From Candidatus Peregrinibacteria bacterium RIFOXYA2_FULL_41_18 (GTDB lineage: Bacteria; Patescibacteriota; Gracilibacteria; UBA1369; UBA12470): a stretch of DNA of 64,000 bases. The notes beneath the pieces are model-generated. The model saw only the letters and a list, made by a program, of their open reading frames with translations, was not told where the DNA came from and did no database searches. The stretch's first letter is position 1. Each line of letters starts with the position of its first letter. This document shows positions 7,566 through 46,198 of this stretch, piece after piece. The stretch is taken from assembly GCA_001788795.1 (NCBI GenBank), contig MFXH01000001.1, forward strand, positions 1 to 64,000, written 5' to 3'. A program made the position numbers and the translations under genes.

Positions 7566-7610
7566 CACTATGTCACTTCTTCAACTTCCCCTACTTCTTC
7601 AATAACTTCC
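7566..7610 (-). repeat. Nonamer array (CTATGTCACTTC family) over the glnA stop
   Basis: The + strand reads CACTATGTCACTTC, then 9-bp units built on ACTTC (ACTTCTTCA, ACTTCCCCT, ACTTCTTCA). The glnA TGA (7599-7601) lies inside. In the gene sense the array ends GAAGTGACATAGTG. Confidence 0.85.
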
Positions 7611-8981
7611 GAGGTACTCCTGTATCTCCCACTGACTCACGGTCATTCTGTACCTATCCCACTCATCGATTTTAACACGTCTGAAAGCCTGATAAACATG
7701 CTCGCCTAGCGCCTCTCTAACAATTTCATCTTTTTCAAGTTTCTTCAACGACATCATCAAGTTTTCATTAAGAGATTCGATACCAAGTTCAGCGATTCTA
7801 TCACCGGTAAATTCATAAATATCTTCTTCTACGGGAGCCGGAGGCATAAGACCTTTCTTAACACCTTCAAGACCTGTCGCAAGCATAACGGCAAAAGCCA
7901 AATAAGGATTAGCCATAGGATCCGGACATCTAAGTTCACATCTTGTGGCATGAGGAGCGGTAGAAGGAGTAACCATCGGAACTCTGATAAGAGCAGACCT
8001 GTTTTTTCGAGCCCAAGCTATATAAACAGGAGCCTCGTATCCGACAACAAGCCTCTTATAAGAATTTACGGTAGGATTTGTAATAGCGTTAAACCCTCTA
8101 ATATGCTGCAACTGCCCAGCCATAAAAGATAATGCTGTCTTACTCAACCCATATTGATTACGTGCATCGGAATCATAGAAAAGATTCTCCCCTGTCTGCA
8201 GAGAAGCAAGGCTCTGATGCACATGCATACCGGTACCGTTTACGCCTGTTATAGGCTTGGCCATAAAAGTCGCATGCAAACCGTATTTAGCCGCAATAGC
8301 CTTCAAAACAGTCTTGAAAGTAATCGCATTATCGGCAACCGTTAAAGCGTCTCCATATTTGAAATCTATCTCGTGTTGCCCGTGTGAACACTCGTGATGT
8401 AACGCCTCAACCTCAATTCCCATCTCATCGAGCGCAAACCCCATATCATTCCTTATTTCGATAGCCAAATCGTTCGTCTGATCAAAATATCCGGCCTTAT
8501 CGTTAGGAAGAGCTTTCAAATCACCATTCTCCTTTTTAAACAAAAAGAATTCCAATTCAGGTCCCGTATTGAATTTGAAACCCATCTCCTCAGCCTTCTT
8601 AAGCTGCCTCTTGAGAACTCCTCTCGGATCTCCGGGGAACGGTTCACCGCTTGGCAAATAGACATCGCAAATTATTCTGGCAATCACATCTTTCCGATCC
8701 TTGGTCCACGGTAAAACAGCAAATGTATCCAAATCAGGCTTCAAGTACATGTCGCTCTCTTGAATTCTCATAAATCCTTCTACGGAAGAACCATCAAACC
8801 AAACATTTCTATCTATCGCCTCGCTAAGCTTATGAACCGGAATCGTGAGCGCCTTAACCATTCCAAGCACGTCCACAAACTGCATATTTACATACGCAAC
8901 ATGCGCCTCCTCGCATTTTTTCAGAACATCTTCTTTTGTCATACCGGTGCGTTTTTTATACGCATAATCGTGATGAGCCAT
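7599..8981 (-). CDS. glnA: Glutamine synthetase type I
   Basis: GlnA forms glutamine from glutamate, ammonia and ATP in the cytoplasm. From the ATG at 8981 (MAHHDYAYKK) the product is 460 residues, the usual GSI-alpha length; an upstream TTG-type extension lacks homology. Visible motifs include WFDGSSVEGF, the metal and substrate segment PELEFFLF, HHECSHGQHEIDFKYGDAL, NGTGMHVHQS and the C-terminal NPYLAFAVMLATGLEG. I see no NLYDLP-type adenylylation site, so control by adenylylation is unlikely. It is divergent from a TrmB-type regulator. The last residues and the stop codon fall in a nonamer repeat array. Confidence 0.96.
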   Translation of the reverse strand: MAHHDYAYKKRTGMTKEDVLKKCEEAHVAYVNMQFVDVLGMVKALTIPVHKLSEAIDRNVWFDGSSVEGFMRIQESDMYLKPDLDTFAVLPWTKDRKDVIARIICDVYLPSGEPFPGDPRGVLKRQLKKAEEMGFKFNTGPELEFFLFKKENGDLKALPNDKAGYFDQTNDLAIEIRNDMGFALDEMGIEVEALHHECSHGQHEIDFKYGDALTVADNAITFKTVLKAIAAKYGLHATFMAKPITGVNGTGMHVHQSLASLQTGENLFYDSDARNQYGLSKTALSFMAGQLQHIRGFNAITNPTVNSYKRLVVGYEAPVYIAWARKNRSALIRVPMVTPSTAPHATRCELRCPDPMANPYLAFAVMLATGLEGVKKGLMPPAPVEEDIYEFTGDRIAELGIESLNENLMMSLKKLEKDEIVREALGEHVYQAFRRVKIDEWDRYRMTVSQWEIQEYLGSY

Positions 8982-9198
8982 GATTTTTTTGGTTAGTGGT
9001 AAAAATTTCTTACGGGCATGAAATACCACAGGGCTTGCGAACAAAAAAGGTGATTTTCGAGTTGAAATTCTGAGTGTAAAAATTCCCGACAGCACTCCCG
9101 TTACACAAGCCGACTTGCCATATCGGAAAAAGATCGTAAATCATCCTCCGGGGGATGGCGCACTCCAACTCAACAGAGTATCAATCCTACACCTTCGA

Positions 9199-9220
9199 TT
9201 TTTCTCCGCGGGGAGAAAAA
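9199..9220. promoter_or_regulatory. Perfect inverted repeat between glnA and the TrmB-type gene
   Basis: The arms TTTTTCTCC and GGAGAAAAA (9 bp each) flank a GCGG centre. It lies just upstream of the -35 box of the regulator gene and about 220 bp before glnA. It could be an operator for the divergent regulator or a structured RNA. No experimental link can be claimed. Confidence 0.5.
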
Positions 9221-9229
9221 CACACAATC

Positions 9230-9257
9230 TTGACCACCAACCCAAACCCGTTATACA
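9230..9257 (+). promoter_or_regulatory. Sigma70-like promoter of the TrmB-type gene
   Basis: TTGACC (9230-9235), a 16-bp spacer and TATACA (9252-9257). It lies 43 bp before the ATG at 9300. Confidence 0.6.
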
Positions 9258-9299
9258 CTATCGCTGTCGGACTTTTCTACAACAGAAATCTAATTGACA

Positions 9300-10025
9300 A
9301 TGCTTCAAAAAATACTCGAAAACATAGGCCTCACAAAAAAAGAATCAAAAATATATCTCTCAGCGCTCGAATCAGGCACAGCTCCCGTTTCACGCATCGC
9401 GCGCAAGGCCGGCATAAACCGAGTCACCGCCTACGACACTCTTGATAAGCTGATCCAAAAAGGCTTCATTACCAAACACAAAAGAAAAGACTCGCTCTAT
9501 TTCAATGCCGTCGATCCGGAAATAATCGCACTCGACTTCCGTGCACGTGCCCGCGACTTGCGCAAATCACTGCCGGATTTCAAGCGACTGAAAGGCGAAA
9601 CACCTCACCCTCAAATCCAATATTTCGAAGGACTTGAAGGAATTAAAAAAATCTACCTCGACACCCTAAACGCCAAGACCGAAATCCTGAATTACGCCGA
9701 CTCAAAAGGAATTCGTCAGATGTGGCCCGAATACGACATTGAATATGTCGAAAAAAGAGTTAAACGAAAAATTTACCTCCGAGGAATCTCCCCCGCCGAC
9801 GAACACGGCAAAAAGGTGAAAGCCGAAGATTGGAACAATTACCGCGAAATCCGCCTCGTCGATTCGAACGAATTCGACTTCTCAAACGAAATCAACATCT
9901 ATGACAACAAGGTCGCAATCGTCTCGTTCTCACCAACTCCTCTGGGAATGATTATCGAAAACGAAAGCATCGCACTAACCCAAAGAGCAATATTTAAAAT
10001 GGCATGGGGGTTTGCAGGAAGATAG
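9300..10025 (+). CDS. TrmB-family transcriptional regulator
   Basis: The 241-residue protein begins with a winged helix (LTKKESKIYLSALESGTAPV, then SRIARKAGINRVTAYDTLDK), the TrmB-type DNA-binding domain. A short helical linker (about 85-100) and a C-terminal sensor-like domain follow, with IQYFEGLEGIKKIY and NEINIYDNKVAIVSF. TrmB proteins usually sense sugars, but many CPR and archaeal members have no known ligand. I chose ATG 9300 over the in-frame TTG two codons earlier. The divergent neighbour is glnA, and an inverted repeat lies between them, so control of nitrogen assimilation is a reasonable guess only. Confidence 0.88.
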   Translation: MLQKILENIGLTKKESKIYLSALESGTAPVSRIARKAGINRVTAYDTLDKLIQKGFITKHKRKDSLYFNAVDPEIIALDFRARARDLRKSLPDFKRLKGETPHPQIQYFEGLEGIKKIYLDTLNAKTEILNYADSKGIRQMWPEYDIEYVEKRVKRKIYLRGISPADEHGKKVKAEDWNNYREIRLVDSNEFDFSNEINIYDNKVAIVSFSPTPLGMIIENESIALTQRAIFKMAWGFAGR

Positions 10026-10028
10026 AAA

Positions 10029-46019: not shown

Positions 46020-46027
46020 ATCTGTTA

Positions 46028-46056
46028 ATTATAGCAGAAAAACTAGGAACTAACAA
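46028..46056 (-). promoter_or_regulatory. Sigma70-like promoter of pilT
   Basis: On the minus strand: TTGTTA (46056-46051), a 17-bp spacer and TATAAT (46033-46028). It ends 8 bp before the ATG. The -35 and spacer lie in a CTAACAA-type heptamer array. Confidence 0.6.
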
Positions 46057-46077
46057 CTACTAACTAGTAACTTAGAG
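46043..46077 (-). repeat. Heptamer array, CTAACAA family, upstream of pilT
   Basis: The units CTAGGAA, CTAACAA, CTACTAA, CTAGTAA and CTTAGAG run at period 7. Confidence 0.85.
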
Positions 46078-46087
46078 AGAATTCCCA

Positions 46088-46122
46088 CTACCAGTTACAA
46101 ACTACAAGTTATTAGCTAAAAA
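46088..46122 (-). repeat. Second CTAACAA-family heptamer array
   Basis: The units CTACCAG, TTACAAA, CTACAAG, TTATTAG and CTAAAAA run at period 7, between the groEL terminator and the first array. Confidence 0.8.
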
Positions 46123-46151
46123 AGAGGAGAACCTTTTCCGGCTCCCCTCTT
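46118..46151 (-). terminator. Rho-independent terminator after groEL
   Basis: On the minus strand AAGAGGGGAGCC pairs with GGTTCTCCTCTT (two G-U pairs) around GGAAAA, then TTTT. Confidence 0.85.
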
Positions 46152-46152
46152 A

Positions 46153-46198
46153 ACTATGTCACTACGTCACTTCTTCTACTTCCCCTACTTCTTCCTAG
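46153..46198 (-). repeat. Nonamer array over the groEL stop
   Basis: CTATGTCACTACGTCACTTC is followed by the units ACTTCTTCT, ACTTCCCCT and ACTTCTTCC. The groEL TAG (46195-46197) lies inside. The terminator follows directly. Confidence 0.85.

What the first reader, a model, noticed from the sequence alone, without database searches (positions are those of the whole stretch)
7566..46198. A 9-bp-period repeat family placed on stop codons with fixed gene polarity
Ten loci carry CTATGTCACTTC (one degenerate, 23959) followed by 9-bp units of the type ACTTCTTCA/ACTTCCCCT: 7566, 17069, 18411, 27993, 29163, 38483, 42125, 43987, 46153. In six cases (glnA, ftsX, the 28036 gene, dnaA, frr, groEL) the stop codon lies within the array. 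The ftsX copy is on the other DNA strand, so orientation follows the gene, not the genome; only 17069 is reversed. In the gene sense the array ends GAAGTGACATAGT. Fixed polarity at 3' ends suggests a function in RNA (3' end formation, stability, ribosome release) or an insertion process that recognises gene ends. I know of no described element of this form.
Basis: seen in the sequence. Interest (0 to 1): 0.92.

Follow-up and report, generated by a model that had tools for sequence, protein, structure and literature searches.

The report
Strand-polar repeat insertions at gene edges
About a hundred short, lineage-specific repeat insertions sit exactly against the edges of genes in this tiny-genome bacterium; they mostly point one way along the chromosome whatever the gene direction, and a sister genus has unrelated repeats pointing the same way, which suggests that the two DNA strands are treated differently along most or all of the chromosome.

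Summary
The repeat is real: 9 good loci in the window and 105 capped arrays in the 1.24 Mb Patescibacteria genome; the motif was not found outside this genome in the collections searched. An array is (ACTAYGTC)n followed by 3-4 x ACTTC-N4 (9-bp period). The interpretation needs changing. Arrays are insertions: IGRs are ~51 nt longer than in a relative and protein C-termini are unchanged. The 3' end of the ACTTC strand lies against an ORF edge: stop codons of antiparallel genes (63), but also start codons of parallel genes (14 by my gene calls). So this is not a gene-3'-end signal. Orientation is coherent along whole contigs (94/104 by leave-one-out), beyond what gene sense predicts. Several unrelated C/T-rich heptamer families share the polarity. 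In sister genus G001, entirely different heptamers point the same way in 12/12 contigs compared by synteny. The ACTTC strand has A>T at 4-fold sites in every contig with an assigned polarity, whereas GC skew flips. No Rho, reverse transcriptase or Y1 transposase match. Best reading: a new 9-bp member of the known intergenic short-tandem-repeat insertions (STRR/TAACTGA/GGGAATC type), with chromosome-scale strand polarity as the new feature. How the polarity arises is not shown; largely one-directional replication is my inference.

The parts
7567..7601 (+). array (cap + 3 units); body overlaps the TGA stop of glnA (stop at 7599, - strand)
17078..17112 (+). array, start-codon class: body abuts the called start of the + gene at 17110
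18411..18445 (-). array opposite to the contig's majority polarity; body overlaps the TGA stop of ftsX (+)
27994..28037 (+). array (4 units) at the TAG stop of the Yip1-domain gene 28036-28650 (-)
29162..29187 (+). cap + 2 units followed by TTCTGCC/TCATGCC heptamers, inside the pantothenate-kinase ORF 28684-29601 (-), read in a stop-free frame just before the conserved IGGTGVGGGT motif; looks like an in-frame insertion
38484..38518 (+). array at the TAA stop of dnaA (-)
42126..42160 (+). array 1 nt after the TAG stop of frr (-)
43987..44003 (+). cap + 1 unit, followed towards the stop of the 44050 gene (-) by the TCTGCTGTCTG/TGTCTTG heptamer module
46153..46195 (+). array (2 cap units + 3 units) directly after the TAG stop of groEL (-)
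24143..24169 (+). TGTCTTG heptamer tract flush with the stop of gene 24170-25165 (-): unrelated repeat, same polarity and position
40418..40437 (+). TGTCTTG heptamer tract next to the stop of gene 40442-42037 (-)

Best explanation
These are lineage-specific, dispersed intergenic short-tandem-repeat insertions (35-44 bp; 8-bp cap plus 3-4 ACTTC-N4 units). SHOWN: they are extra DNA added at ORF edges, with the 3' end of the pyrimidine-rich strand against the coding sequence, and they mostly point one way along the chromosome whatever the local gene direction. INFERRED: they arise by a strand-asymmetric, probably replication-coupled insertion or extension process on a chromosome whose two strands keep fixed identities over long distances, possibly because it is copied largely in one direction. 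Purifying selection then keeps those at ORF edges, most often after stops, where the purine-rich strand in the transcript carries stop codons. The genome shows no Shine-Dalgarno enrichment, so an insert against ATG need not destroy a ribosome-binding site. They are not general gene-3'-end signals; whether they have any function is not shown.
For: Insertion: +51 nt versus orthologous IGRs of G002 in 13 antiparallel pairs and +54 nt in 7 parallel pairs, array ~43 nt; C-termini unchanged, median difference 0. Flush: body within -20..+5 nt of an ORF edge in 69/104, 24.5 expected from random placement, cap side 9. Polarity: 94/104 leave-one-out; coherence statistic 89 versus at most 65 in 5000 gene-sense simulations. 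Unrelated repeats share it: TGTCTTG 10-mer 56:4, TGTCTTG/TCTGCTGTCTG 36:5 IGRs, TTCTGCC 21:6. Sister genus: three unrelated families fully orientation-coherent per contig, polarity equal to that projected from this genome in 12/12 contigs. A>T on the polarity strand at 4-fold sites in all 18 own contigs with assigned polarity and in all 20 G001 stretches, in both GC-skew states. Polarity is continuous over a 373-kb contig of G002, across the GC-skew switch. Selection: caps without ATG preferred when the array precedes a start, p=0.009. No SD enrichment. Precedent for a whole-chromosome strand disparity in Patescibacteria: PMC7143001.
Against: Slippage is not supported: no two of 85 arrays share the same three spacers and identical neighbouring units are avoided (6 versus 15.7 expected), which looks like constraint on the ACTTC core. 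Selection does not by itself explain why only the 3' end of one strand is flush. In the B half of the genome coding GC skew runs opposite to what array polarity would predict from the A half, so the link to replication direction is indirect. The polarity was shown within contigs and by synteny over about a third of the chromosome, not on a closed circle.
Confidence: 0.5

Rival explanations
1. The arrays are binding sites for a sequence-specific protein (ds or ssDNA) that needs polar ACTTC units at 9-nt spacing, for example a chromosome organiser or translocase-guiding signal, kept in one orientation by selection.
For: ACTTC core and cap nearly invariant while spacers vary; narrow length (3-4 units in 85 of 105); no clonal copies and avoidance of identical neighbouring units; one polarity.
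Against: Not found in relatives; unrelated heptamer families share the same polarity and placement, so no single protein would explain them all; flush placement at ORF edges is not needed for a DNA site.
Confidence: 0.18
2. RNA element at gene 3' ends (3' end formation, mRNA stability or ribosome release).
For: 63 arrays flush with stops in the same sense; gene sense has some effect of its own (7/24 versus 1/56, p=7e-4).
Against: 17 of 24 arrays between genes that run with the chromosome polarity point against gene sense; at least 14 arrays abut start codons as the complementary strand; intrinsic terminators are not rarer at array-bearing stops, 0.12-0.33 versus 0.06-0.19; no Rho match.
Confidence: 0.07
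3. A non-autonomous mobile element moved by a dedicated transposase or reverse transcriptase that targets ORF ends.
For: Dispersed insertions with one sharp end (cap) and one ragged end; one copy apparently inserted in frame in pantothenate kinase.
Against: No reverse transcriptase (PF00078) or Y1 transposase (PF01797) match in a 99% complete genome (other transposase families not searched); no clonal copies; chromosome-scale orientation is hard to get from it.
Confidence: 0.1
4. Orientation was set by ordinary leading/lagging replication polarity, and half the genome later reversed its replication direction, leaving arrays as fossils.
For: In state-A contigs all skews agree with arrays being pyrimidine-rich on the C/A-rich strand; in state B only GC skew at 4-fold and third positions is reversed, TA is weakly of the old sign and codon positions 1-2 are near zero.
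Against: G002, at about 62% protein identity, shows a similarly weak B-like skew over the syntenic region, so the state is old; unrelated repeats of G001 point the same way in B-type contigs.
Confidence: 0.15

Closest known systems
GGGAATC / GGGGA(T/C)T heptamer repeats of Xanthomonas and Nostoc (PMC4692102)
   Same: Intergenic tandem repeats; the ORF on the 5' side of the G-rich strand is the near one whatever its orientation, including overlap with stop codons: the same placement rule.
   Different: 7-bp, G4-forming units; both chromosome strands used about equally and no leading/lagging preference in Xanthomonas; here 9-bp with a separate 8-bp cap, variable spacers and one chromosomal polarity.
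TAACTGA heptamer repeats of Beggiatoaceae, Cyanobacteria and Bacteroidetes (PMC4679880)
   Same: Intergenic, mostly ending 1 nt upstream of start codons; some sets overlap stop codons; few Shine-Dalgarno sites; the author noted that in a small Microcystis sample all sets lying between stop codons had one chromosomal orientation.
   Different: One fixed heptamer in several phyla; mainly at starts; chromosomal polarity not established. The array here is confined to this genome among those searched.
Cyanobacterial STRR sequences (known to me from general knowledge; term used in PMC5088731)
   Same: Short tandemly repeated repetitive heptamers in intergenic regions.
   Different: Unit length, cap, and strict strand polarity.
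Whole-chromosome strand disparity of Ca. Chazhemtobacterium, Collierbacteria and Beckwithbacteria (PMC7143001)
   Same: Patescibacteria chromosomes with one strand compositionally distinct along the whole length; authors suggest mostly one-directional replication.
   Different: There it is GC skew of closed genomes; here TA skew and repeat orientation agree everywhere while GC skew flips, in a fragmented genome of another lineage.
Tandem repeats of Borg elements (PMC9879509)
   Different: Perfect units, locus-specific sequences, linear extrachromosomal elements, and genes all on one strand of each replichore.

Membership tests
Intergenic short-tandem-repeat insertions (STRR / heptamer type) | Short-period (7-9 bp) head-to-tail units dispersed at many loci, mostly intergenic | tested here: met
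   105 capped arrays; 69/104 flush with an ORF edge; few inside ORFs
Intergenic short-tandem-repeat insertions (STRR / heptamer type) | Near-identical tandem units | tested here: not met
   Core ACTTC conserved, 4-nt spacers vary and identical neighbours are avoided; hence filed as a variant of the kind, not as a member of a named family
Intergenic short-tandem-repeat insertions (STRR / heptamer type) | G-rich strand's 5' end next to an ORF of either orientation (rule of PMC4692102) | tested here: met
   63 stops and 14 starts flush on that side; 69 versus 9 on the other side
RNA 3'-end / terminator element | Follows gene sense irrespective of chromosome strand | tested here: not met
   17 of 24 arrays between genes parallel to the polarity point against gene sense
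RNA 3'-end / terminator element | Replaces other terminators | tested here: not met
   Intrinsic terminators not rarer at array-bearing stops
Rho-dependent terminator (C-rich rut) | Host encodes Rho | tested here: not met
   PF07497 not found in the genome at 99% completeness
REP/RAYT element | Y1 transposase in the genome | tested here: not met
   No PF01797 match
Transposase- or RT-moved element in general | Clonal copies of one element | tested here: not met
   No two of 85 arrays share the same three spacers; no PF00078 match; other transposase families not searched
KOPS/Chi-like replication-polar motif | Orientation flips with replichore (GC skew) | tested here: not met
   Same array orientation on both sides of the GC-skew switch
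CRISPR array | Identical repeats of tens of bp with unique spacers of similar length | tested here: not met
   5-bp core and 4-bp spacers, 3-4 units

The most novel reading that the evidence does not exclude
In this family of Patescibacteria the two strands of the chromosome have fixed identities around most or all of the circle, probably through largely one-directional replication. Unrelated repeat families in different genera independently record that polarity by inserting in one absolute orientation against gene edges.
Probability: 0.35. Interest if true: 0.82.

Novelty: new variant of a known kind. Interest (0 to 1): 0.62.

Why it matters
Intergenic heptamer-type repeats have been noticed for decades without an agreed origin. 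Here several unrelated families in two genera share one chromosome polarity and one placement rule, which points to the DNA process that makes them rather than to a regulatory RNA. It also gives a readable marker of strand identity in uncultured Patescibacteria, where one-directional replication has so far been suggested from skew alone.

Tried and rejected
(1) Orientation set by gene sense: rejected as sole rule. (2) Orientation set by GC-skew replichore: rejected, since contigs of negative skew carry either only + or only - arrays. (3) Arrays overwrite or truncate gene ends: rejected by orthologue comparison. (4) Arrays replace intrinsic terminators, or act as Rho sites: not supported. (5) Slippage or clonal copying: not supported. 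(6) Reverse transcriptase or REP transposase: no match. (7) Known RNA family in the window: none. (8) Occurrence elsewhere: none in genome contigs, viral contigs or the other genomes of the phylum sample; single stray 12-mers in a few relatives. (10) No G001 or G002 homologue of the pantothenate-kinase ORF was found in the parts held, so its inserts rest on motif position only.

Full report
WHAT IS THERE. The motif CTATGTCACTTC occurs in the window far above chance (10 matches with up to one mismatch, 0.27 expected). In the 1.24 Mb, 20-contig genome that holds the window (99.1% complete; G000) there are 65 exact copies and none of the reversed control. I fetched the whole genome in pieces and called genes with a simple codon-Markov caller (1033 genes, 87% coding). 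Allowing CTACG caps, there are 105 arrays of the form (ACTAYGTC)1-6 followed by ACTTC-N4 units at 9-bp spacing, mostly three or four units. Aligned on the cap, ACTAYGTC-ACTTC and the next two ACTTC cores are nearly invariant, while the spacers are pyrimidine-rich and variable. The best hits of the window's GroEL are Ca. Peregrinibacteria and Gracilibacteria, so the host is a Patescibacterium, probably of that side of the group.

THEY ARE INSERTIONS. A relative of the same family, G002 (median 62% protein identity), lacks the 12-mer. Across conserved gene pairs, array-bearing intergenic regions are longer than those of G002 by a median of 51 nt (13 antiparallel pairs) and 54 nt (7 parallel pairs); pairs without arrays differ by 6 and 22.5 nt. 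Protein C-termini of array-bearing genes match their orthologues (median difference 0). GroEL, for instance, keeps a GMDY end and TAG stop directly before the array. One copy in the window (29162-29187) lies in the pantothenate-kinase ORF in a stop-free frame, just before the conserved GGTGVGGGT motif; the best alignments to solved structures begin at or near that point.

WHERE THEY SIT. The 3' end of the ACTTC strand (the body) lies within -20 to +5 nt of an ORF edge in 69 of 104 cases, against 24.5 expected from random placement in the same intergenic regions; the cap side does so in 9. With slightly wider limits the edge is a stop codon of a gene on the other strand in 63 cases and a start codon of a gene on the same strand in 14; several more abut an ATG by eye where my caller chose a later start. 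This matches the rule reported for Xanthomonas and Nostoc heptamers, that the ORF 5' of the G-rich strand is the near one irrespective of its orientation (PMC4692102), and the TAACTGA repeats of which the largest class ends 1 nt before start codons (PMC4679880). The genome shows no Shine-Dalgarno enrichment upstream of starts (2.8% versus 3-4% in shuffles), so an insert against ATG need not be lethal. When an array precedes a start, ATG-less caps are commoner (15 of 28 versus 19 of 76; p=0.009), a sign of purifying selection.

ORIENTATION FOLLOWS THE CHROMOSOME. Of 104 arrays, 94 point the way of the other arrays on their contig; the coherence statistic (89) exceeds all 5000 simulations in which orientation follows gene sense at the observed rate (maximum 65). 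In tandem gene pairs 72 of 80 follow the contig and 62 of 80 the gene; gene sense has a weaker effect of its own. Orientation is not explained by GC skew: some contigs with negative skew carry mainly + arrays and others only - arrays. The contigs form two groups of about 590 and 560 kb. In one, the ACTTC strand is C- and A-rich at all codon positions. In the other, 4-fold GC skew is reversed, TA skew keeps its sign, and positions 1-2 are near zero. In G002 one 373-kb contig spans our contigs C18 (part), C5, C10, C8, C11, C13, C20 and C16, from both groups, and projected polarity stays constant across the switch (C5 and C11 have no majority of their own).

OTHER REPEATS SHARE THE POLARITY. Unrelated heptamers such as TGTCTTG are oriented the same way (top 10-mer 56 to 4; 36 to 5 IGRs) and lie against the same edges. 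C/T-rich families lie to the right of the A-rich families along the polarity strand in the few regions holding both; two A-rich families (AAGTCNT, TAACTGG) show no polarity. In the sister genus G001 the repeats are entirely different (CCCTA-, CCTAA- and ACTACT-type heptamers), yet are orientation-coherent per contig (13/13, 18/18, 5/5) and, where flush, mostly against starts. Projected by synteny, their pyrimidine-rich strand is the same strand as here in 12 of 12 contigs that hold them. In all 20 G001 stretches and in all 18 own contigs with an assigned polarity, that strand has A>T at 4-fold sites. These families are not independent within a contig, and the sample is three genomes.

WHAT IT IS NOT. 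There is no Rho RNA-binding domain, reverse transcriptase or Y1 transposase match, no Rfam match in the window, and intrinsic terminators are not rarer at array-bearing stops. No two of 85 arrays share the same three spacers (2.3 identical pairs expected), and identical neighbouring units are avoided (6 versus 15.7; 0.1% of shuffles), which argues against simple slippage and against clonal transposition. The array was not found in GTDB contigs, IMG/VR contigs, or the other genomes of the phylum sample; records near the window's own genome may be left out of the first two.

INTERPRETATION. Shown: insertion, flush placement, chromosome-scale polarity, sharing of polarity across families and genera. 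Inferred: a strand-asymmetric process, most simply tied to how the chromosome is copied, makes such inserts in one orientation, and selection keeps those at ORF edges. A whole-chromosome strand disparity with suggested one-directional replication is known in other Patescibacteria (PMC7143001), which makes this plausible, but the opposite GC skew in half of this genome means that ordinary bidirectional replication also leaves a trace. Why only one end of the array touches the ORF is unexplained. The conserved core with free spacers leaves a protein-binding role open.

LIMITS. Genes, especially starts, come from a heuristic caller. Contig polarity was assigned from the arrays themselves (leave-one-out used for the test). 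Polarity around the full circle is not proven; it is continuous over about a third of it.

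Noticed in passing
28684-29601 (-): A type II pantothenate-kinase-like ORF seems to carry two in-frame inserts made of intergenic-type repeats (CGAATA/GAATTC-type heptamers near 29262-29343 and the TTCTGCC/TCATGCC + array near 29162-29212).
   Followed up: partly
whole genome, contigs C1-C20: GC skew at 4-fold sites changes sign between two contig groups of about 590 and 560 kb while TA skew keeps one sign relative to repeat polarity; codon positions 1-2 are skewed in only one group.
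   Followed up: partly
whole genome: No Shine-Dalgarno enrichment upstream of starts on either strand.
   Followed up: partly
3692-3837: An 18/36-bp tandem repeat (CCGGGAGGAGACACAGG-like) inside the 1844-5242 gene.
   Followed up: no
window 7532-47915, several places: Further intergenic heptamer families (CGGTATT, GTCGTAA/GTCTTAA, ATAGGTC, ATCTGCA, TGCCTCA), several with a constant core and variable bases.
   Followed up: partly
50492-55896 (+): Two adjacent ~900-aa ORFs without any NCBIfam match at the default threshold.
   Followed up: no
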